A DNA stretch of 64,000 nucleotides from Paenibacillus sp. CAA11. GTDB taxonomy: Bacteria; Bacillota; Bacilli; Paenibacillales; Paenibacillaceae. This document shows, piece after piece, positions 8,502 through 61,465 of this stretch. Positions within the stretch are counted from its first letter, which is position 1. Every line of letters starts with the position of its first letter. The stretch spans positions 3,021,001 to 3,085,000 of the forward strand of contig NZ_CP028922.1 in assembly GCF_003060825.1 (NCBI RefSeq), read 5' to 3'. The position numbers and the translations under genes are program-made. The notes under the pieces were generated by a model that was not told the DNA's origin, ran no database searches, and saw only the letters and a program-made list of their open reading frames with translations.

Positions 8502-9149
8502 TTAATACTTCACCTTCAGCCCTAACAGCTTGGCGAACCCGATCGCCTGCTCCGGCGAGACCGTACAACCAGCCAGGGCCTGCATTGGGATGTCGATCCG
8601 TTCATAGGTGCAGGTGCTGATATCTATCCCTTTCAGGGAAGTATCATTGAAGTCTGCTTCGTTCAGGTCATTCTCATGAAGCTCCAAGTCTTTGAACTTA
8701 CAGCCATAGAAATTCGCGCTCTGCAAAGAACAACTGGCAAACCGTACTTGCTTCAAAGAAGCCTCTACCAGGTCCGCCAAATTCATAAGACAGTTCTCAA
8801 AGGTAACATGTCCTAAGTTTGCTTTGGACAGATTCATCCCCGTCAATTTGCAGTCTTTGAAATGAACGCGGTGAATTACCCCCTTTTCAAGCCGGGCATT
8901 GGACAAATCACAGTTTTCCAGCACGACGTCGGTCAGATCCAGCCGGTCAAACGTCGTATTTGTAAAAGAACAATTGCGAAGCTGCACCTTGGCCAAGATA
9001 CAGCGTTCCATGACTTCATAATCATAGGAAGCGCTGTTTACCAAACCGTTGACCAGCTCATGATCGTGATCTGCTAGCACGTCCTCCCAGCTGGCCTCAG
9101 TCAATTCCGTCGAAAGCTGGGGGGAGTTAATTTTACTTTTCCCTGCCAT
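8502..9149 (-). CDS. Pentapeptide-repeat protein
   Basis: A 215-residue protein with at least 20 tandem A(D/N)LXX-type repeats from about residue 50 to 180 (for example CSFTNTTF, LTDVVLENCDLSNARLEKG, LHENDLNEADF). Such repeats form a square beta helix; some members mimic DNA and protect gyrase, most are uncharacterised. The N-terminal 45 residues are not repeats. It is the last gene before the Shango-like operon, separated by about 100 bp, with its own ribosome site (GGAG) and terminator. Confidence 0.85.
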   Translation of the reverse strand: MAGKSKINSPQLSTELTEASWEDVLADHDHELVNGLVNSASYDYEVMERCILAKVQLRNCSFTNTTFDRLDLTDVVLENCDLSNARLEKGVIHRVHFKDCKLTGMNLSKANLGHVTFENCLMNLADLVEASLKQVRFASCSLQSANFYGCKFKDLELHENDLNEADFNDTSLKGIDISTCTYERIDIPMQALAGCTVSPEQAIGFAKLLGLKVKY

Positions 9150-9254: not shown

Positions 9255-11480
9255 CTACACTTCCGTGCTCCTGCCTATCGCTAGCGCCTCAGCCAACCCC
9301 TTCAGGTCCAGCCCATCTACAGCGAACGCACGCCGAACCAGTGCTGGCGGGATATATTCATCATATTTACCAAGGTACGGAGCCTCCGACTCATCCAGCA
9401 GAGCTTCCGGCTCCTGAGCGCCAGCCAGCTCGGCCTGAATCCCGGCAAGCAGTTCCTCCGCCCCCGTTCTCCCCGCCACAACCATATAGTACGGCTCCAT
9501 CGGCACGACTTGCCTTAGTCCCATAGGCTCTGTCAGGTTATGCTTCAGCAGACGCTCCAGCGTACGGAACTGCTTACTTCCTGCCCACGGTAAAATAAAC
9601 AGGGAATCCCCGCCCGCCGGAATCACTGGACTGCGCAGCAGCCCACTCTCCCGAGCAAGCCGCCGGGCACGTTCCAGACGATTCACCGCACCGGGGGCCA
9701 GGTACGGATACAGCATCTGCTCCTCAAGCACCTGGCGCATCTTTTGCAGGATACGAGTATGGACGTCTCCGCCCGCGCCAAGCCAGAGCGTATCTACCTT
9801 TCCCCTGGAGGACTTTACGTACACCGCCTTGTGCTTGTTATCCACTTCCTCCACCTTCCACAGCTTACCAGCTAACGAGAAGCAGTAGCCTGGGGGTGGC
9901 ACTGTCGTAATGCTCCCGATCTCCTCGGAGCCATTGTATACCACATGCTCCTCATCATCCTTGAACACGGCATAGAAGCGAAAGTTGTTCACAATCTTCT
10001 CCCCGCCGAGTCCAATGATCAGCGTGCCTTCTTCGGTCTGCTGGATATGGTCGGTTTGCAGCAAATATTGCAGCATTCCCCGGTATTCCTCCGGCTCAAT
10101 GCCGCGAAAAGCCGGCAGTGTCAGCACCGCCCGTGCCAGCTCGGCGGGCGCGGCCTCGCCCATACTCTTCAGCGTGCTCATCGTCTGGTGGTAGAGAACG
10201 CCGACTGGCTTGCGCCGCAGATCGAGCGGCTCGACCCACCTCTCGCGAATGTACAGCTCGATCACGGCGATCGCCCGCAGCAGCGTCCACGGCATGCGGG
10301 CAGGCAGCTGCGCCTCCTCGTCCTCTTCCTCGGCGCAGAGGAACATCATCTCGGACGCCTGGTCTCCCCGGCGTCCGGAGCGGCCGAGCCGCTGCACAAA
10401 GCTGGAGCAGCTGTACGGTGCTCCGAGCTGGATAACCCGTTCCAGCTCGCCAATGTCAATGCCCAGCTCCAGCGTTACCGTCGCTGCGGCTACCGCAGGC
10501 CCCGGGCCGGTGCGAAGCGCGGCCTCGGTCTCCTCCCGCAGCATCGCGGAGATGCTTCCGTGATGCACATGGAACACATCGCGTTCCTCCCGCTTAACAG
10601 CAATCCGCCGCAGCTCCAATGTCGTGAGCTCAGCGTCGGAACGGCTGTTGGTGAAGACCAGCGCTTTTTTACGGTGCGTATGGTCGTAAATATAATTGTA
10701 GTAATTCTGCTTAGCCAGCTCCAAATGCTCGGCCTCCCGCTCATTCCGTGCATCCGGGAAGGAGAAATGCTCCACCGACAGCTTCAGCTTCCGTCCGCCG
10801 TGCGGAGAGACGACCTCAACCGGCTGCGGAGTTCCTCCCCCAAGCCAGCGGGCGGCGGTGTCATAATCACTAAGCGTGGCCGACAGCCCAATCCGCCGCG
10901 GCGTGCAGCACGCCATGCGCTCCAGCCGGGTCAGCTGGCTCAGCACCTGAATGCCCCGGTCTGCGCCCATAAAAGCATGTACTTCGTCGATCATAATATA
11001 CCGCAGATCATGGAACAGGGCGGGGATCGCATTCGGGCGGTTCATCAGCAGGCCCTCTAACGATTCAGGAGTAATCTGCAGCACACCGCACGGGCGCTGC
11101 ATGAGCTTTGTTTTCTCGGCCTGAGAGACATCCCCGTGCCAATGCCAGACCGGCACCTCTCCCTCCCGGAGCAGCTCGCTGATTCGCTCGAACTGGTCGT
11201 TGATCAGCGCCTTCAGCGGCCCGATATAGAGGATGCCGACAGAGCCGGACGGCCGGTGGTACAGCTCGGTGAGCGCCGGAAAAAAAGCAGCCTCCGTCTT
11301 CCCCGACGCCGTCCCCGAAGCGATCAGCAGATGATGCTGCGTATCAAACAGCACGCGGCAGGCCTCGACTTGAGCCTCGCGTAGGGAATCCCACTGCTTG
11401 CGGTAAATGTACTCCTGTATAAACGGGGCTAACCGGGAGAAAGGGTTCCCTCTCCCTGCTTTAGAATCATGCCCGCTCAT
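9255..11480 (-). CDS. sngC: Shango helicase: Lhr-like DEAD/DEAH protein
   Basis: A 741-residue SF2 helicase. Motif I is SGTASGKT at residues 55-62, motif II DEVH at 165-168, motif III SAT at 200-202, and the C-terminal helicase domain has the arginine-finger segment QRLGRSGRRG. The last 350 residues carry a winged-helix/Lhr-type extension (VYNGSEEIGSI, RILQKMRQVL). It should unwind or translocate on nucleic acid using ATP. Its ATG overlaps the stop of the ATPase gene by four bases, so the two are coupled. Similar helicases (BrxHI) occur in BREX type 2. Confidence 0.85.
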   Translation of the reverse strand: MSGHDSKAGRGNPFSRLAPFIQEYIYRKQWDSLREAQVEACRVLFDTQHHLLIASGTASGKTEAAFFPALTELYHRPSGSVGILYIGPLKALINDQFERISELLREGEVPVWHWHGDVSQAEKTKLMQRPCGVLQITPESLEGLLMNRPNAIPALFHDLRYIMIDEVHAFMGADRGIQVLSQLTRLERMACCTPRRIGLSATLSDYDTAARWLGGGTPQPVEVVSPHGGRKLKLSVEHFSFPDARNEREAEHLELAKQNYYNYIYDHTHRKKALVFTNSRSDAELTTLELRRIAVKREERDVFHVHHGSISAMLREETEAALRTGPGPAVAAATVTLELGIDIGELERVIQLGAPYSCSSFVQRLGRSGRRGDQASEMMFLCAEEEDEEAQLPARMPWTLLRAIAVIELYIRERWVEPLDLRRKPVGVLYHQTMSTLKSMGEAAPAELARAVLTLPAFRGIEPEEYRGMLQYLLQTDHIQQTEEGTLIIGLGGEKIVNNFRFYAVFKDDEEHVVYNGSEEIGSITTVPPPGYCFSLAGKLWKVEEVDNKHKAVYVKSSRGKVDTLWLGAGGDVHTRILQKMRQVLEEQMLYPYLAPGAVNRLERARRLARESGLLRSPVIPAGGDSLFILPWAGSKQFRTLERLLKHNLTEPMGLRQVVPMEPYYMVVAGRTGAEELLAGIQAELAGAQEPEALLDESEAPYLGKYDEYIPPALVRRAFAVDGLDLKGLAEALAIGRSTEV

Positions 11481-12826
11481 AGCTCAAACTCCGCCAAAAA
11501 GTCATCGAGCTCGTCTTTTTCCTCATTATGACCACGCGCGCCTGCTGCCGCAGCCTCCAGCTCCCGTTCGCCCATCAGCTCTTCAAATGTCAGCTCGCTA
11601 TGCTGATGCAAAATATGCAGCACATCCATAAAGTCCCGCACGACCTCCCGGGTCGTCAGCAGCTCCTCCGCACCAAGCCGGTTCACCGCGGCCTGCATGA
11701 ATGCAATCAGCTGCTCGTCGCTAAGCCTAGCTTCATAGCCAAAATGCAGCGCATGAATACCCCGAAGCTTCTGCAGCAGGATCATAATCTCTTCATGGGA
11801 CAGCATGTCCAGCTTCAGAATCGGCGAGGTGTAGGTCCGCCGGGCCCCGCTGCTATACCTTCCATCCATCAGCCGTGACCGGAGGGCATCATAGCTGAAC
11901 AGCCCTCTGCGCTCATCCTCCACAAACTGCGGCGTCCCGCCCAGGTAGATGCCCAGATATTGGGCTTTGCCCTGCATCGTATCATTAAACATTGTCAGCA
12001 GCTTCTCGTAATTGCTCTGCCTGGAGATGCTATTCGTAATTTTGTACAAATTCACACCTTCATCAATAAAGAGCAGGAGCCCCTTGTACCCGATCCGCAC
12101 GGCGAATTCCGCCCACAGCTTCATATAATCGTACCAGTTGTCGTCATCGATAATGACGCCAACCCCCAGCTCTTTCCGCGCTTCCGTCCGGGTCGGGAAT
12201 TCTCCGCGCAGCCAGCGCAGAGCCGCCGCCTTCCGTTCATCGTCGCCCAGCTTGTAGCCCGACCAGTATGCGGCCAGCACTTTGGAGAAGTCAAAGCCGT
12301 GCACCAGATTTTGCATTTCAGCCGTGACCGCATAAATGCGCAGCTCTACCGCCTCCAGCAGCTGAGGATCTCCTGGACGCAGGCCACTTGACTGCATCTG
12401 CTCCTGCTGTAATCCGGCGATCCACTTCTGCAGTATACTCTCCAAAGCGCCGCCGTCCGGCCTTGTCCGGGTAGACAGATGCATCATCAGCTCACGGTAT
12501 GTAGCCAGTCCCTGTCCCTTCGTGCCGACGAGCCGCCGCTCTGGCGACAGATCGGCATCTGCCACCACAAACTCCCGATCCATCGCATAATTGCGGATCA
12601 TCTGCAGCAGAAAGCTTTTCCCGCTCCCATAGCGCCCGGTAATCAGCCGGAAAGCCGCTCCGCCTGCCGCGATATTGTCCATATCCTGGAGGATGGATGC
12701 CACCTCGGCCCGACGGCCGACCGTGATATGCTCCAGCCCAACCCGCGGCACCACGCCCGCCGTGAGGGAATTCACCAGTGCGGTTGTGAGCCGTTTCGGA
12801 ATTTGCACCTGTTTCAACGTGACCAC
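11477..12826 (-). CDS. sngB: Shango ATPase: BrxD/DUF2791-like P-loop protein
   Basis: A 449-residue AAA-type ATPase. Walker A is GRYGSGKS at residues 64-71 and Walker B LLFIDE at about 250-255, followed by a sensor-like YLGIYLGGTPQF. The sequence fits DUF2791, the BrxD family of BREX type 2, which normally sits beside an Lhr-like helicase. It would supply ATP-dependent assembly or gating of the helicase on phage DNA. It is the middle gene of the operon: 28 bp after the TerB gene and overlapping the helicase gene. Confidence 0.85.
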   Translation of the reverse strand: MVTLKQVQIPKRLTTALVNSLTAGVVPRVGLEHITVGRRAEVASILQDMDNIAAGGAAFRLITGRYGSGKSFLLQMIRNYAMDREFVVADADLSPERRLVGTKGQGLATYRELMMHLSTRTRPDGGALESILQKWIAGLQQEQMQSSGLRPGDPQLLEAVELRIYAVTAEMQNLVHGFDFSKVLAAYWSGYKLGDDERKAAALRWLRGEFPTRTEARKELGVGVIIDDDNWYDYMKLWAEFAVRIGYKGLLLFIDEGVNLYKITNSISRQSNYEKLLTMFNDTMQGKAQYLGIYLGGTPQFVEDERRGLFSYDALRSRLMDGRYSSGARRTYTSPILKLDMLSHEEIMILLQKLRGIHALHFGYEARLSDEQLIAFMQAAVNRLGAEELLTTREVVRDFMDVLHILHQHSELTFEELMGERELEAAAAGARGHNEEKDELDDFLAEFEL

Positions 12827-12854
12827 CTCTTCTATCTAAACATTCTATTCAAAA

Positions 12855-14864
12855 TTAAGAACCTCTTCGGAGCACATGATGAAGCTCGTCCCGGTATTCC
12901 TCCGTAATTTCATCCACATCAATAAGCAAATCGCCGATCTGCTCCATCGAGATCTCGTTGATCTCATCCATCATCAGCTCTGGCATCGAGCCAGCTTCCT
13001 CAGCAATGCTGTAACGTACGGCGTCACCTTCCCCGCGAAGCAATGCAGCCAGCAGCTTCCTATGAGGCTCAGATAATCGCGCCGCCAGCTCCTGCCATTC
13101 GATTACTATCGGCCACTCATCCGCCTCATCAATCAGCTGACCATCCGTATCAAGGTAAACTGCACCACCTTCACCGAACGGTGAGTCTTCCGACAGAGCA
13201 GCACAGGTATGAAGCTTCTGGCTCAAGTCCTTCTCATGGCTATCCACTGGAGCCTGCTCCACAAGCTGCTCCAACAGATGCTTCTCAGTTCCCTTATCAC
13301 TATGCCCTTTAGCTCTTTCTTCGCTGCTACCTTCAGCTCGTTCAGCGCTGCTTACTTTAACCCTTTCATCACTTCGCCGCATTTCTTCCGGCTCCCACAC
13401 TTCCTTTGGTTTCTCCTCTGGAGATGCAGCCTTGCCCTGAGTTTCTTCCTTGTACGATTCTTCCTCATATCCCAGCCAGCCCCGTTCGAAATCCAGCACG
13501 CCCTGCTGAGGCTCATTCCCAGCTTTATGGCGGCCTGCCTTGCTAGCTCCCGGCTTAGCTTGAGATATTAATTCAGCCGCTCCGAAAGATGCTGTTGTTC
13601 CTTGCGTGACTGGGTCATCAGATTCGCCGGATGGTTTCCCATAAACACGGTTGTCCCCTAGGTTCAGCTTCAGTTCCTCTGTAAGCAGCATGTCCCGCAC
13701 CTCGTCCGACTCCCGCTGAAGCTTGCGAAGCTTCGCAGTATTGATCTTGATCGCAGGAACCTGGGACTTCACTTCTTTCGCCCGGCGCAGTTCAAATTCC
13801 TTACGCAAGTAACGGGAGATTATCTGCTCAACCTCTGGCTCAACCTGGATGCCCCGCAGCCGTCCCTTGAATCCTGTCAGCTCCCGCAGCTGATTCTCCG
13901 TAAGCCTTGTCAGCTGCGTCAAATAAGCCCGGAGTGGGGGATGCTGGCTGATCGGCAGCACAGGTACCGTTATCGTGCGCCCGTAAAGCCCATGGTCATA
14001 AACCGCGCTGCGGAACAGGTAGCGGGTAACCCTTTTTTCACGTGGCATAAAAAGGTCTAAAAGCCGTCTTCCCTTCGTCTTCGATAAGTACCCATCGACC
14101 AAAACCACCACTTTCGGCAGATATTCCCGCAGCACCTTTCGCCCTTGCTCACGGTAATAGCGGCCCTTCTCCACCTCATAATCGATGAGCTGCAGCAGCA
14201 GCTCCCAGGTCAGCTCCAGCGGCTCGGCGCGAAAGCGTCTTCGCCATTCCAGCTCCCTTAGCTCGGGAGATAGGCTGCGCGGAATCTTGGAAAGCGGTTC
14301 GGCGGGAGTCGGGTCCAACCCGAACACCAGAACTAAATCGTACAGCCATTCCCGCACATACTGATCCAGCTTAGGGTACCTTTGCCGATAAGCCTGCCAT
14401 ATTCGATCCATCAGCTCGTAACCCTGCTTAGGCTCACGCCAGCCGATTCCGTGGATTAGCTCATACAGATATACAAATACATAGGACAAGTCTGTATCCG
14501 GATAACGCCCGGCCCGAACCTCTCCCCGCCAATACAGGTACCACCGCTTCTGTGCGGATTGCATCTGCTCATAAGTCGGCCAGTAAGTGTGAAAAGGAAC
14601 AAATTCGGCATGCTCCACAGCCACCTCCTCCAGGTCCCGTGCCTGCTGCACAAACTGCCCTTCCCGGGAGACATAGCGAAAGCTATCCCCCCATTCCACA
14701 TCCCGCTCGTAGCGGTCTGGGGTCACAACCCTGCTGATCGGTTCCTTCTCCTCATGCACCGGCACATCAAGCTCTACCTCCGCAAATTGAGGCTGCCGCT
14801 CTCGCGGTATTCTTGCTCCGTCCTTTTCTATATGAATGTCGTGTTTGTACGTTCTATTGTTCAT
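12855..14864 (-). CDS. sngA: Shango TerB-domain protein
   Basis: A 669-residue soluble protein, started at ATG 14864 (GGAGG ten bases upstream); the longer frame to 14981 has no ribosome site. Residues about 95-330 hold the TerB-N domain (VPFHTYWPTY, WYLYWRGEVRAGRYPDTDLSY). A charged linker follows (about 440-560, rich in Glu and Lys), then a TerB-C-like acidic helical domain at the end (LLAALLRGEGDAV, MEQIGDLLIDVDEI). TerB proteins act in stress and phage-response systems; here it is the presumed sensor or scaffold. First gene of the operon. Confidence 0.85.
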   Translation of the reverse strand: MNNRTYKHDIHIEKDGARIPRERQPQFAEVELDVPVHEEKEPISRVVTPDRYERDVEWGDSFRYVSREGQFVQQARDLEEVAVEHAEFVPFHTYWPTYEQMQSAQKRWYLYWRGEVRAGRYPDTDLSYVFVYLYELIHGIGWREPKQGYELMDRIWQAYRQRYPKLDQYVREWLYDLVLVFGLDPTPAEPLSKIPRSLSPELRELEWRRRFRAEPLELTWELLLQLIDYEVEKGRYYREQGRKVLREYLPKVVVLVDGYLSKTKGRRLLDLFMPREKRVTRYLFRSAVYDHGLYGRTITVPVLPISQHPPLRAYLTQLTRLTENQLRELTGFKGRLRGIQVEPEVEQIISRYLRKEFELRRAKEVKSQVPAIKINTAKLRKLQRESDEVRDMLLTEELKLNLGDNRVYGKPSGESDDPVTQGTTASFGAAELISQAKPGASKAGRHKAGNEPQQGVLDFERGWLGYEEESYKEETQGKAASPEEKPKEVWEPEEMRRSDERVKVSSAERAEGSSEERAKGHSDKGTEKHLLEQLVEQAPVDSHEKDLSQKLHTCAALSEDSPFGEGGAVYLDTDGQLIDEADEWPIVIEWQELAARLSEPHRKLLAALLRGEGDAVRYSIAEEAGSMPELMMDEINEISMEQIGDLLIDVDEITEEYRDELHHVLRRGS

Positions 14865-15034
14865 CTTCCACAGACCTCCATCACGATTCCCATTATACCA
14901 TCCTACCGAAAATTTGTTCGCTTTTTCTAAAGAACAAATATGGCTCGGAAGGAATAAAATTGGCATCCGGCAAGTTTTCATATTATGCTGAGAAGAGTAT
15001 GGAACTTTGAATTAGAGTTAAAAGGGGCAATGTT

Positions 15035-15748
15035 ATGAATAAATGGCTTAAGGCGCTACTGTTCCTGGTGGGAGCGGCATTTCTGACAAGGCTGATTCCG
15101 TTCTCCAGCTGGTTCCGCATGCTGGACACCATGGTGCATGAGCTGGGGCATGCCATAATGACCTTGGTGATGTCCGGACGCGTCCTCCGTATTGAACTCA
15201 ACGCCGATCACAGCGGTGTGACTTATTCCCTGCTCACTTCCACAGGCTGGGGACAGATCCTCGTGTCACTAGCGGGCTACATTTCGGCTTCTCTGTTTGC
15301 GATTGCCTTGTTTTATGGCTACCATAAGCACAAAGAAAAGGCCGGTCTCATGACCATCAACGTGCTGGCACTGGTTACACTTCTCTTTTTTGTGCGATCC
15401 GGATACGGTTTGTGGTGGCTGATCATCTTTATCGCGATCAACCTGGCCTTCCACTTTATCGGCGGGCGAATTGTGAACTTCTATTATTTGCTGCTGGCGT
15501 TTCTTTGCTTGGAAGAGTCCATTATGGGCCCGGTTACACTCTTGCTGCGTTCCATTACCTCCCCCAGCCAAGCCGGAGATGCCGCCAATCTGGCCCATAT
15601 GACGATGGTTCCCGCCTTTATCTGGTCACTGCTGTTCCTTGGCATCTCGCTCTGCTGCGCCATGGCCGCGCTGCGATTATTCTGGAGAGATCGAGGTCAG
15701 AGCAGACAGAGTAAGGCTAATCCTAGACCGGTACGTCGTCCGCTGTAG
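15035..15748 (+). CDS. M50-family membrane metallopeptidase
   Basis: A 237-residue membrane protein with six or so hydrophobic segments and the zinc motif HELGH at residues 36-40 inside the second segment. The second M50 motif (a D near the C-terminal half) is less clear. AAAGGGG precedes the ATG. Relatives cleave membrane-bound anti-sigma factors or are uncharacterised M50B-like proteins; no partner is visible here. It is transcribed away from the Shango operon. Confidence 0.75.
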   Translation: MNKWLKALLFLVGAAFLTRLIPFSSWFRMLDTMVHELGHAIMTLVMSGRVLRIELNADHSGVTYSLLTSTGWGQILVSLAGYISASLFAIALFYGYHKHKEKAGLMTINVLALVTLLFFVRSGYGLWWLIIFIAINLAFHFIGGRIVNFYYLLLAFLCLEESIMGPVTLLLRSITSPSQAGDAANLAHMTMVPAFIWSLLFLGISLCCAMAALRLFWRDRGQSRQSKANPRPVRRPL

Positions 15749-16990: not shown

Positions 16991-17105
16991 CTGTTATAAA
17001 AGTTAGTTGTTCAATTATTTCTACTTTCAACCCTGTACTAAGTTCAAGTGCTTCTAGTACTTCCTCTGCAAATAATTTAACTAAAGCAGCAGCTGCACCT
17101 TGTTC
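16974..17105 (-). pseudogene. C-terminal gene fragment
   Basis: After an in-frame TAA, the minus strand encodes EQGAAAALVKLFAEEVLEAL and then a tail ending TFITEERID. There is no start codon. It lies directly next to remnants of the older prophage and may belong to it. Family unknown. Confidence 0.35.
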
Positions 17106-17107
17106 TT

Positions 17108-17210
17108 AACGCTTTCCTCCGTAATTTCCACAATCTTATCGCATTCATCGAGTTCTTCCGCAGCAAATACGACAATTGGCGCTTGCTCCAATGGATTCAA
17201 TTTTCCTGCA
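17108..17210 (-). pseudogene. Remnant copy of the small phage gene at 58896-59099
   Basis: About 90 bp (from ACGCTTTCCTCCGTAATTTC onward) match the middle of the gene at 58896-59099 with scattered substitutions; both ends are lost. This places the debris at the integrase-proximal end of a related phage. Confidence 0.7.
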
Positions 17211-17255
17211 ATATCGTAAAAGAAACGCTCACCTCCGAAGAGATGAGCGTAGCAA

Positions 17256-17615
17256 TCATTTTAACTTTGTATTACGTTTTGTTTGTGTTAATAACGAATT
17301 AACAGGACATTCCTTTTCATGCGTTGTACGTAAGTCGTAGTTAACAAGTCGTTTCCTCGTACTATGTCAGAGTAACTTCTGCGTAGAGAAAGCGTTCGCA
17401 CCGTTACGAAGAAATTCAAGCGCAAAGGCATGTCTTAGATCATAGGGCCGGATGTAATGGCCGATACTCTTACTACTGTAAAGCTCCATACGATCACCCC
17501 ACGTATGACAGTTAAGCGGGCGCCCTTCATACGAGCAGAATATTGGAGTATCTTCGCCCCATTCCTCCATTCGGACGGATAACAACTTACGTAACGTAAT
17601 CTTACCAAAACAAAA
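17256..17615 (-). pseudogene. Decayed integrase of an older prophage
   Basis: Residues corresponding to the C-terminal third of the integrase at 60331-61269 are readable: EEWGEDTPIFCSYEGRPLN, HIRPYDLRHAFALEFLRNGA-type sequence, then a stop and further matches to the tail (TQTKRNTKL). The start region (GGAGGCGTTTTTGTTTTGGT) is fused directly to the ITLRKLL codons, so about two thirds of the N-terminus is deleted. The catalytic arginine I and the final tyrosine are missing. It is dead. Confidence 0.85.
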
Positions 17616-17699
17616 ACGCCTCCTTCGTATTTAGAACGGAGAGGCGCCTTGCTGGTCCTGTGTATTTGCGTTTTCATCGGTGCAGCTACGCAGGACCTC

Positions 17700-17713: not shown

Positions 17714-17749
17714 GCATTTTTCGTGATGTGACCGTGAAAAACCGTTGTA

Positions 17750-17835
17750 TGCCGAGGACCGGGATCGAACCGGTACGGTAGTCACCTACCGCAGGATTTT
17801 AAGTCCTGTGCGTCTGCCAATTCCGCCACCCCGGC
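17750..17835 (-). tRNA. tRNA-Leu (anticodon TAA)
   Basis: An 86-nt cloverleaf: acceptor stem GCCGGGG with CCTCGGC (one G-U), discriminator A, long class II variable arm, T-loop GGTTCGATCCC and anticodon TAA in the loop ACTTAAAAT. No CCA is encoded. The 5' half is part of the phage attachment repeat, so in the lysogen this 5' half and the promoter above it come from the phage. Confidence 0.95.
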
Positions 17836-17839
17836 ATGG
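17788..17839. repeat. attL, 52-bp attachment core
   Basis: Identical to 61414-61465; sequence identity ends at 17788 (T versus A) and 17839 (G versus A). It covers the tRNA 5' half through the anticodon arm and four bases above the tRNA. Confidence 0.93.
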
Positions 17840-48765: not shown

Positions 48766-48779
48766 CGAACCTATGTTCG
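48766..48779. promoter_or_regulatory. LexA (SOS) box upstream of the replication gene
   Basis: CGAACCTATGTTCG matches the Firmicute LexA consensus CGAAC-N4-GTTCG exactly at the arms, two bases downstream of a TATAAT at 48781-48786 on the minus strand. Confidence 0.7.
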
Positions 48780-58895: not shown

Positions 58896-59099
58896 TTAAC
58901 CCGCATATTTAAACGTACAGACAGCGCGAAGAAATCGCTCGTCTCCGATCTTCACGCTTTCCTCCGTAATTTCCGCAATCTTACCGCTGCCGACGAGTTC
59001 TCCCGCAGCAAATACGACAACCGGCGCTTGTTCCATTTGCGCGGTATAAAAGTGCAAGTTGGCCGTTAGCGTCCGCATAAATCGACTCGATCGTTTCAT
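58896..59099 (-). CDS. Small conserved phage protein
   Basis: A 67-residue protein (LTANLHFYTAQMEQAPVVVF, GSGKIAEITEESVKIGDERF) with AAAGGAC before the ATG. A decayed copy exists at 17108-17210, so it is a stable part of the integrase end. Function unknown; fold looks like a small beta barrel. Confidence 0.65.
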   Translation of the reverse strand: MKRSSRFMRTLTANLHFYTAQMEQAPVVVFAAGELVGSGKIAEITEESVKIGDERFLRAVCTFKYAG

Positions 59100-59178
59100 T
59101 TGCGTAGTCCTTTCGTCATGTTTGCGTTAATATTTCGACGAATTGGTTCGATTTTTCTGCCGGTAAAAATGTATTGGA

Positions 59179-60222
59179 CTAATAAGTCCGCTTGATCTTT
59201 CTTTCGAGGCTCCGTTTCCCCAACACATCATGCATCGGCGTATACTGCTCATGTTGGGCTTTGAGCGCCTTATCTGAGATATGTGTGTAGCGCATAACCA
59301 TACGCAAGTCTGAATGTCCCATTATTCCCGCAAGGTGACGAAGATCCCCACCATTTTCAAGAAACATCGTGGCCGATGTATGGCGAAACAAGTGCGGATG
59401 AACGCGGATTTTTAATCCTGCATTCTTGGCGTGTTGTTTTATTCGATCGCGAAGTCTATCGTCTCTTATCGGTTCACCGTAATTCGTTAAAAAAATGTAC
59501 TCAGACTCGAACTCCTCGTTCTCTCTAATTAGCTCTTTTAGAAGGCGCAGTGTTCGTTTAGTTACCGGAACAGACCTTCCGCGTCTTGTTTTTACTATTT
59601 TCTCATCAAAAAAGAGCATTCCTAACTTGAAATCAATATCTGTTATTTTCAAGGAAAGCACCTCACTTATACGGGCAAAACTGTCAATTAAAACACACAT
59701 GGCTACGTGATCCCTGAAGCCGGCATAAGTTTTACGGTTAGGTTGATTGAGAAGTCTCCGCATCTCTTCAACACTCATAATTTTCAATTTCTTTACCGGT
59801 TCGTTTAACTTTTTGATGCGTGCAGTTGGATCATGATTGATATGTCCCTCTTCATTAAGATAACGAAACATTCCCTTGATTACTTTAATCTTTGTATTAA
59901 TCGTAACTGGTGACAGTCCTAACGTCATACTATCCTCACTCTTATGAGCATGACCTTCCCACTTTCTCTTTCCATGAAGCATCCAAGAAATATATGACCT
60001 CAGTAGATCTGGAGTTACCGCAGTCTGTGTCCGCTCCACTCCGATCATTTCCATATACTCGCAAAGATGACGATATCCTTCCGTATACGCCTCAAGGGTT
60101 CTGGGGGATCTGCCTTCTGCAGTCTTGGCGTTATAAAATATTTCGAACAACTCATCCAGAGGTAAGTTGCGATTACATACGTTACGTTCATTTTTGTATC
60201 TTCTTCCTATTCGCTTATCCAT
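59179..60222 (-). CDS. Tyrosine recombinase 1 (XerC/D-like)
   Basis: A 347-residue recombinase starting at ATG 60222 (AAAGGG nine bases away); GTG 60228 is too close. SAM-like N-terminal domain at residues 20-110, catalytic domain with Arg I in FARISEVLSL, K in VKTRRGRSVPV, HxxR as HLFRHTSATM, and Tyr in RYTHIS. All catalytic residues are present. It may be a second integrase, an excision-aiding recombinase or a dimer resolver; an equivalent gene is missing in the older remnant. Confidence 0.85.
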   Translation of the reverse strand: MDKRIGRRYKNERNVCNRNLPLDELFEIFYNAKTAEGRSPRTLEAYTEGYRHLCEYMEMIGVERTQTAVTPDLLRSYISWMLHGKRKWEGHAHKSEDSMTLGLSPVTINTKIKVIKGMFRYLNEEGHINHDPTARIKKLNEPVKKLKIMSVEEMRRLLNQPNRKTYAGFRDHVAMCVLIDSFARISEVLSLKITDIDFKLGMLFFDEKIVKTRRGRSVPVTKRTLRLLKELIRENEEFESEYIFLTNYGEPIRDDRLRDRIKQHAKNAGLKIRVHPHLFRHTSATMFLENGGDLRHLAGIMGHSDLRMVMRYTHISDKALKAQHEQYTPMHDVLGKRSLERKIKRTY

Positions 60223-60279
60223 TGCCACAAGCCCTTTCTTCGTTTTGATACCCCTATATTAACAAGATAGACCGTATAG

Positions 60280-60327
60280 AAAAAATAACGCTCACCCCTG
60301 CGGCTATTTGCCGAAGAGATGAGCGTT
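60280..60327 (-). terminator. Terminator of integrase 2
   Basis: AACGCTCAT and GTGAGCGTT pair around a GGC/GCC stem, followed by ATTTTTTC on the minus strand. A related sequence lies in the older remnant near 17221-17250. Confidence 0.8.
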
Positions 60328-60330
60328 ATA

Positions 60331-61269
60331 CTATATTTTCGTTGTTCTTTTCGTGTTCTTCATTAGTTTATTCAACGGACTTGCCTTTGCATGCTCCGCC
60401 TTCAAATCGTCAGTTACCAGAGCGACATATCGCTTAGTCATCTCCATACTCGTGTGCCCGAGTGTTTTCTGTAATGCAAAACTATTCGCCCCATTGCGAA
60501 TGTATTCTAAACTAAACGCATGTCTTAGATCGTAAGGTCTAATATGGACACCCAATTCTCGCGTATACTTTTCAAGCCGATCGCCCCAGGTATGGCGATT
60601 TAGAGAGCGTCCCTCATACGTACAGAAAATCGGAGCTTCCTCGCCCCACTCAGCGGGCCGTGCCGCTAAGAGGCGTTTTAATGTCTTTAGCGTGATATCA
60701 GATATCGGCAGTGTGCGCGATATCCGAGTTTTAGCATTTTTCGCCGGAATATAAATTTCGTAAGAAGCCGGATTAAAATCACAAGGCAATAAGGTGAGGG
60801 CCTCTTTCGGTCGGATGCCGGTGTCTAAAGTTAAGAGGATAAGCGCGTAATCCCTAAGACCAACGAATGTTGACTGATCTGGCATCTCTAGCAACTTCTG
60901 CAAGATGCGCTCATCAACTGCGACAACACGCCCTTCATCTTTCCGCTTCTTCATGTTCGCGATCGGATTATGCGTTATTATTCCCTTCTCCACACACCAA
61001 TTCAAAAACGTGCGCAAGTAAATCAATCGATTGTTAAACGTAGCCGGTTTTACCTCTTCGGAGAGATGTGCGTATAACCCTTCCGTCAAATTGTCCGGAG
61101 TATTCCATGCGTTGGGGAACCGCTTAAAAAATAGCCGCGCGTGCTTATCGTAATCTTCGTAAGTCTGCGCGCTGATACCCTGAGCGGTTTTATAATCGAG
61201 GAATCCTGCGAGGGCTTGCTCCCACGTCATGAGCGAAGGATCAGTGGTAATTTTACGTACTCTAGCCAA
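60331..61269 (-). CDS. int: Tyrosine integrase 2, attachment-site integrase
   Basis: A 312-residue integrase starting with TTG 61269 (GGAGG eleven bases above). Catalytic residues: Arg I in TGIRPKEALT, HxxR as DLRHAFSLEY, Tyr in TKRYVALV. An arm-binding N-terminal domain (LAGFLDYKTAQGISAQTYED) precedes it. It is adjacent to attR and flanked by arm-type sites, and a decayed orthologue lies next to the tRNA at 17256-17615, so it is the likely tRNA-Leu integrase. Confidence 0.9.
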   Translation of the reverse strand: MARVRKITTDPSLMTWEQALAGFLDYKTAQGISAQTYEDYDKHARLFFKRFPNAWNTPDNLTEGLYAHLSEEVKPATFNNRLIYLRTFLNWCVEKGIITHNPIANMKKRKDEGRVVAVDERILQKLLEMPDQSTFVGLRDYALILLTLDTGIRPKEALTLLPCDFNPASYEIYIPAKNAKTRISRTLPISDITLKTLKRLLAARPAEWGEEAPIFCTYEGRSLNRHTWGDRLEKYTRELGVHIRPYDLRHAFSLEYIRNGANSFALQKTLGHTSMEMTKRYVALVTDDLKAEHAKASPLNKLMKNTKRTTKI

Positions 61270-61350
61270 AATAAAAACGCCTCCATTTCGAATGGCTGCG
61301 CTAGGTTCTGTGTAGTATTTTTGCGTATAAATCAGACCCGGAGGACCTTA

Positions 61351-61413: not shown

Positions 61414-61465
61414 ACCGCAGGATTTTAAGTCCTGTGCGTCTGCCAATTCCGCCACCCCGGCATGG
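61414..61465. repeat. attR, 52-bp attachment core
   Basis: Identical to 17788-17839. It is the orphaned 5' half of tRNA-Leu attached to its native promoter. Confidence 0.93.

What the first reader, a model, noticed from the sequence alone, without database searches (positions are those of the whole stretch)
9255..14864. Complete Shango-like anti-phage operon beside a prophage
TerB-N/TerB-C protein, BrxD/DUF2791-like ATPase (GRYGSGKS, LLFIDE) and Lhr-like helicase (SGTASGKT, DEVH) are in the order and coupling known for Shango (TerB protein, ATPase, helicase). Seen: all motifs and the 4-bp overlap. Known: Shango was reported as a three-gene anti-phage system. Inferred: activity here.
Basis: partly seen in the sequence, partly recalled or inferred. 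Interest (0 to 1): 0.72.

Follow-up and report, generated by a model that had tools for sequence, protein, structure and literature searches.

The report
Core-genome Shango operon in Paenibacillus
A three-gene operon that matches the anti-phage system Shango is real and intact here, but unlike the patchy Shango of E. coli it is a permanent part of almost every genome in parts of Paenibacillus, lacks the TerB core domain, and has a DNA-damage-type switch site in front of it, so it may be fixed immunity or a genome-care machine.

Summary
Three intact minus-strand genes (sngA 14864-12855, sngB 12826-11477, sngC 11480-9255, 4-bp sngB/sngC overlap) score best against the PADLOC Shango profiles SngA/B/C (351, 679, 832 bits), far above BrxD/BrxHI. 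The prophage is real (52-bp att repeats at tRNA-Leu) but the operon lies outside it; the neighbourhood is incidental. (1) The operon is near-core: SngB in 96/96 and SngC in 99/100 species of one Paenibacillus genus, versus 438/5426 E. coli genomes and 16 of about 390 other Bacillota; single copy, ordinary flanks, dN/dS 0.01-0.09 for SngB/C. (2) SngA has TerB_N and TerB_C but no TerB core (PF05099); none of 117 Paenibacillaceae SngA matched a TerB-core profile, while E. coli, haloarchaeal and alphaproteobacterial Shango do. SngB splits into matching clades. (3) An invariant LexA-like box, CGAACAARYTTTCG, precedes sngA in the window's group. I read it as a Bacillota-subtype Shango: a damage-induced ATPase-helicase complex acting on foreign or damaged DNA. 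Anti-phage activity is untested for this subtype; a housekeeping genome-maintenance role is a live rival.

The parts
12855..14864 (-). sngA: TerB_N (res. 51-262) + disordered linker (about 398-582) + TerB_C C-terminal part (576-661); no TerB core
   Evidence: PADLOC SngA 350.9 bits; Pfam PF13208, PF15615, no PF05099; AlphaFold2 model, two folded helical parts joined by a low-confidence linker
11477..12826 (-). sngB: P-loop ATPase of the BrxC/BrxD family (Walker A GRYGSGKS, Walker B LLFIDE)
   Evidence: PADLOC SngB 679 bits vs BrxD 148.5; Pfam BrxC_BrxD 536 bits
9255..11480 (-). sngC: Lhr-like superfamily-2 DEVH helicase
   Evidence: PADLOC SngC 832 bits vs BrxHI 421.8; Pfam DEAD, Helicase_C, weak WH_Lhr; best solved relatives by sequence are ATP-dependent DNA helicases 5v9x and 7lhl
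14907..14920 (-). LexA-like operator candidate CGAACAAATTTTCG, just upstream of the extended -10
   Evidence: invariant core CGAACAA..TTTCG in 15 species while flanks vary; 1 mismatch to CGAACRNRYGTTYG, same as the recA box of this genome
14892..14897 (-). -10 hexamer TATAAT (preceded by TG), candidate sngABC promoter
   Evidence: sequence; conserved in relatives
14875..14879 (-). ribosome-binding site GGAGG of sngA
   Evidence: sequence
8502..9149 (-). pentapeptide-repeat protein, conserved downstream neighbour in the window's species group; not part of Shango
15035..15748 (+). M50B-type peptidase, conserved divergent upstream neighbour in the window's species group; not part of Shango

Best explanation
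sngABC is a Bacillota-subtype Shango operon that has become a fixed, mainly chromosomal and mostly vertically inherited part of the genome in much of Paenibacillus. Shown: three intact, strongly conserved proteins in the Shango order; SngA without a TerB core; an invariant LexA-like box over the promoter in the window's group. Inferred: SngA is the scaffold/sensor that couples two helical domains through a fast-evolving disordered linker; SngB (BrxC/D-type ATPase) assembles on DNA with it; SngC (Lhr-like helicase) translocates on or unwinds DNA at replicating or damaged foreign DNA. Production rises when LexA is inactivated by DNA damage, as during phage replication. No nuclease domain is found in any of the three, so the effect is probably to block or dismantle replication intermediates or to feed them to host nucleases.
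For: Profiles. Complete operon in nearly all of 118 Paenibacillaceae loci examined, window included. SngB in 212/368 family genomes, 96/96 of genus g14; SngC in 99/100, while PglZ (BREX marker) is strong in only about 6/100 of the same genomes. Purifying selection: omega 0.014-0.086 (SngB), 0.025-0.087 (SngC), 0.098-0.243 (SngA), 0.009-0.045 (gyrB). Box upstream of sngA within 1 mismatch in 15/16 loci of the window's group, and within 2 mismatches in 32/64 others, against 10/660 and 56/660 upstream regions of flanking genes; its core is the longest invariant stretch in the upstream region; lexA and recA of this genome carry GAAC-N4-GTTC-type boxes; Firmicutes LexA consensus in PMC2248561. Related mobile Shango is anti-phage in P. 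aeruginosa (PMC10250203).
Against: No member of the core-less clade is known to me to have been tested. The box has T where the LexA consensus has G (half-sites CGAAC/CGAAA), so another regulator is possible, and the 32/64 non-group matches are largely one related species group. Near-universal presence is unusual for immunity. SngB/SngC and gyrB trees conflict across groups (AU p 2.8e-6 for gyrB), so inheritance is not purely vertical.
Confidence: 0.5

Rival explanations
1. Housekeeping genome-maintenance complex. In Paenibacillus the operon serves mainly replication-fork or DNA-damage repair (LexA-regulated), and anti-phage Shango elsewhere is a related, more mobile version.
For: Core-like distribution, single copy, gyrB-like constraint on SngB/C, ordinary flanks, damage-type box.
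Against: Absent from some healthy genomes of the same genus (6 of 37 at 95% completeness or more) and from whole sister genera (g13 0/14), so not essential; SngA evolves fast, as sensor proteins in conflict often do; a divergent sister copy sits on a P. peoriae plasmid.
Confidence: 0.3
2. Ordinary accessory Shango defence, same mechanism as in E. coli and P. aeruginosa, carried here by chance near a prophage.
For: Same three genes, same order, same profiles.
Against: Not patchy here, no island, no TerB core, sister SngB clade.
Confidence: 0.15
3. Part of a BREX type 2 system (BrxD and BrxHI).
For: SngB and SngC also match BrxD and BrxHI.
Against: Scores are 530 and 410 bits lower than for SngB/SngC; no PglZ, PglX or BrxC gene beside it.
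Confidence: 0.01
4. Decaying or silent remnant.
For: A few relatives have a stop or frameshift (G037 SngB TGA; P. rubinfantis SngC split).
Against: All three genes intact here, conserved promoter box, omega well below 0.3 in all pairs.
Confidence: 0.02

Closest known systems
Shango (SngABC), Millman 2022 / Johnson 2023 (PMC10250203)
   Same: Three genes in the order TerB protein, ATPase, DEAD/DEAH helicase; best profile for each protein; coupled genes.
   Different: SngA lacks the TerB core PF05099 present in the E. coli-type protein; separate SngB clade (SngB about 39% identical to the E. coli plasmid copy); near-core in parts of Paenibacillus instead of patchy; LexA-like box.
BREX type 2 BrxD-BrxHI pair
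   Same: Same ATPase and helicase families side by side.
   Different: Much lower scores; no PglW/X/Y/Z; TerB protein instead.
Lhr-type SF2 helicases
   Same: SngC helicase core and weak WH_Lhr domain; by sequence related to solved ATP-dependent DNA helicases.
   Different: Operon with SngA/B; its own profile family.

Membership tests
Shango | Three adjacent genes in order TerB protein - ATPase - helicase | tested here: met
Shango | Each protein best matched by SngA/SngB/SngC profiles | tested here: met
   350.9, 679, 832 bits; next best far lower
Shango | TerB_N and TerB_C domains in SngA | tested here: met
   PF13208 115.7 bits, PF15615 38.7 bits (C-terminal half only)
Shango | TerB core domain PF05099 in SngA (listed for Shango in PMC10952713; not required by the PADLOC profile) | tested here: not met
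   absent in window; no convincing match in 117 Paenibacillaceae SngA or in L183-L196; present in E. coli, Halocatena, Mesorhizobium and L197 and by custom profile in Arthrobacter, Sulfitobacter, Azospirillum. Hence filed as a variant, not as canonical Shango
Shango | Patchy distribution, defence-island or mobile location | tested here: not met
   contrast (438/5426 E. coli genomes)
Shango | Anti-phage activity | not testable with these tools
   needs plaque assays
BREX type 2 | PglZ/PglX/PglW/PglY with BrxD and BrxHI | tested here: not met
   no such genes beside the operon; BrxD 148 and BrxHI 422 bits against SngB 679 and SngC 832
LexA (SOS) regulon | LexA box over the promoter | tested here: inconclusive
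   box 1 mismatch from the symmetric consensus, 2 from the published one, as for recA of this genome; binding not shown

The most novel reading that the evidence does not exclude
A Shango-family complex has been domesticated in Paenibacillus as a core, LexA-controlled genome-integrity machine; the core-less Bacillota clade and the TerB-core clade are two subtypes with different sensing, the first near-universal in a genus and the second mobile immunity.
Probability: 0.35. Interest if true: 0.72.

Novelty: new variant of a known kind. Interest (0 to 1): 0.52.

Why it matters
Shango has no published mechanism that I found. A subtype that is fixed in a genus and lacks the domain the system is described by suggests that the TerB core is dispensable and points at the ATPase-helicase pair as the working part. 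The LexA-like box gives a direct testable link between DNA damage and this machinery. It also warns that automatic defence annotation will count a core Paenibacillus operon as an accessory anti-phage system in nearly every genome of some groups.

Tried and rejected
BREX membership: rejected on scores and neighbours. Prophage cargo: rejected, the operon lies outside the att repeats and relatives carry it without a tRNA gene nearby. Strict vertical descent: rejected, since gyrB rejects the group that SngB+SngC supports, so at least one exchange within the family is likely. Defence island: 141 flanking ORFs gave only scattered matches, no PADLOC family in more than 3. Fold search with the SngA model gave nothing significant (best E 0.63), and no solved structure by sequence. 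Strict consensus LexA boxes were not found in the genome search; the pattern used was widened at one position to admit the sngA site, so that genome count is biased and not used as evidence. No paper in the library joins Shango with Paenibacillus in a relevant way, nor LexA/SOS box with Paenibacillus. Phage records hold no SngB match.

Full report
What is there. The window carries three co-oriented genes on the minus strand, read in the order sngA (14864-12855, 669 aa), sngB (12826-11477, 449 aa), sngC (11480-9255, 741 aa), with a 4-bp overlap between sngB and sngC. The PADLOC profiles give SngA 350.9 bits, SngB 679 bits, SngC 832 bits; the next families are BrxD 148.5 and BrxHI 421.8. Pfam finds TerB_N and part of TerB_C in SngA, BrxC_BrxD in SngB, DEAD and Helicase_C with a sub-threshold WH_Lhr in SngC, and no nuclease. 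The E. coli plasmid copy gives very similar scores with the same profiles.

The prophage. A 52-bp perfect direct repeat at 17788-17839 and 61414-61465, the first in tRNA-Leu 17749-17836, brackets a phage genome with terminase, portal, tape measure, endolysin and two integrases. The operon lies outside it. In 21 related loci around the operon no tRNA gene is found, so the neighbourhood is particular to this strain.

Distribution. SngB is found at about 74-90% identity in most genomes of the window's own genus. In a search of 368 genomes of the family (at least 95% complete) 212 match; reading the listed handles, genus g14 has 96 of 96, g8 16 of 16, the window's genus 31 of 37 and g13 0 of 14. 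SngC is full length in nearly all of 100 species of g14 (99 with a match), whereas the BREX marker PglZ gives strong matches in about 6 of the same 100. Among other Bacillota only 16 of about 390 sampled genomes match. In E. coli the TerB-core type occurs in 438 of 5426 complete genomes at 80% coverage, and SngB relatives lie on hundreds of plasmids, mostly Klebsiella and Salmonella. No phage record matches. So in these genera the operon behaves as core, while elsewhere it is patchy. Named relatives from the GTDB collection are almost all Paenibacillus, from which I infer the host.

Context and inheritance. In 118 loci the three genes are nearly always complete. In the window's species group the operon sits between a pentapeptide-repeat gene and an M50B peptidase gene; in other species groups it sits between other genes that are constant within the group. 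A PADLOC scan of 141 neighbouring ORFs shows no recurrent defence genes. Mean amino-acid divergence over 31 genomes is 0.11 for GyrB, 0.18 for SngC, 0.19 for SngB and 0.47 for SngA. dN/dS in nine close pairs is 0.014-0.086 for SngB, 0.025-0.087 for SngC, 0.10-0.24 for SngA, 0.009-0.045 for gyrB. Trees agree within species groups but not between them: nine genomes united by SngB+SngC are rejected as one clade by gyrB (p-AU 2.8e-6), so the operon was probably exchanged at least once inside the family before being fixed. gyrB is a single marker, so this is provisional.

A TerB-core-less subtype. PF05099 is present in SngA of the E. coli plasmid, Halocatena and Mesorhizobium and of one distant Bacillota (L197), and a profile made from three of these also finds it in Methylibium (weakly), Arthrobacter, Sulfitobacter and Azospirillum. 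It finds nothing convincing in 117 Paenibacillaceae SngA proteins (best E 0.76) or in the other Bacillota operons L183-L196. The SngB tree splits with high support into the same two groups, 95% and 100%. The alignment shows TerB_N running into the first helix of TerB_C, followed by a long, variable, acidic linker and the last TerB_C helices. The AlphaFold2 model agrees: confident helical parts at about 65-395 and 587-669, linker 398-582 mostly below 50 pLDDT. The PADLOC SngA profile is 528 positions long and matches both forms, so annotation tools do not separate them. A review lists PF05099 as the Shango domain (PMC10952713), hence I call this a variant and not a canonical member.

A LexA-like box. 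Upstream of sngA lies CGAACAAATTTTCG (14920-14907), just before an extended -10 TATAAT. In the window's group the pattern CGAACAARYTTTCG is kept, and over 15 species its two halves CGAACAA and TTTCG are the only long invariant stretch in the upstream region. In four loci its distance to the -10 grows by about one helical turn while the box itself is kept, which speaks for a bound regulator and against a mere -35 element (my reading). A box within one mismatch of CGAACRNRYGTTYG is found in 15 of 16 loci of the group and 10 of 660 flanking-gene regions; within two mismatches in 32 of 64 other sngA regions and 56 of 660 controls, although many of the 32 come from one related species group. In this genome lexA has several GAAC-N4-GTTC-type boxes and recA has CGAATGTATGTTCG, each about as far from the consensus as the sngA box; the Firmicutes consensus is given in PMC2248561. 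In the 64-kb window only one other site is as close, inside the prophage at 48766-48779. LexA control is therefore likely but not shown.

How it probably works. SngB is of the BrxC/BrxD ATPase family and SngC is an Lhr-like SF2 helicase; both keep their catalytic motifs. With no nuclease in the operon the likeliest action is ATP-driven binding and unwinding of replicating or damaged DNA, with SngA as scaffold and sensor whose fast-evolving linker may set specificity. Induction by DNA damage would bring the complex up during phage replication. Johnson et al. found modest plaque reduction and strong protection in liquid for the P. aeruginosa operon (PMC10250203). Whether the Paenibacillus subtype protects from phage, repairs the host's own DNA, or both, cannot be settled from sequence.

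Noticed in passing
window 59179-60228 and 60331-61269: Two tandem tyrosine integrases (both phrog_1) at the right end of the prophage, next to attR.
   Followed up: partly
window 17104-17623 vs 58949-61284: The left flank holds degraded pieces colinear with the right-end integrase region (86% over 87 bp, plus shorter pieces), as if an earlier element at the same tRNA-Leu had decayed.
   Followed up: partly
window 48766-48779: LexA-like palindrome CGAACCTATGTTCG inside the prophage, close to putative early regulatory genes; possible SOS link of the prophage.
   Followed up: no
L128, L155, L156, L066 (SngA), L183 10764-14456: Some Bacillota SngA proteins carry several hundred extra N-terminal residues with a conserved stretch (AELILEG...GVGQ...) of unknown nature.
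   Followed up: no
L194, L196 (SngA): SngA of two distant Bacillota has an N-terminal TM2 membrane domain.
   Followed up: no
plasmids collection: SngB relatives on about 690 plasmids, 449 Klebsiella and 144 Salmonella records, mostly conjugative.
   Followed up: partly
L236: Divergent sister Shango on a Paenibacillus peoriae plasmid, SngA about 1050 aa, beside a phospholipase D-like gene.
   Followed up: no
L016 / G037; L034 and L082: Isolated broken copies: SngB with an internal TGA in G037, SngC split in P. rubinfantis.
   Followed up: no
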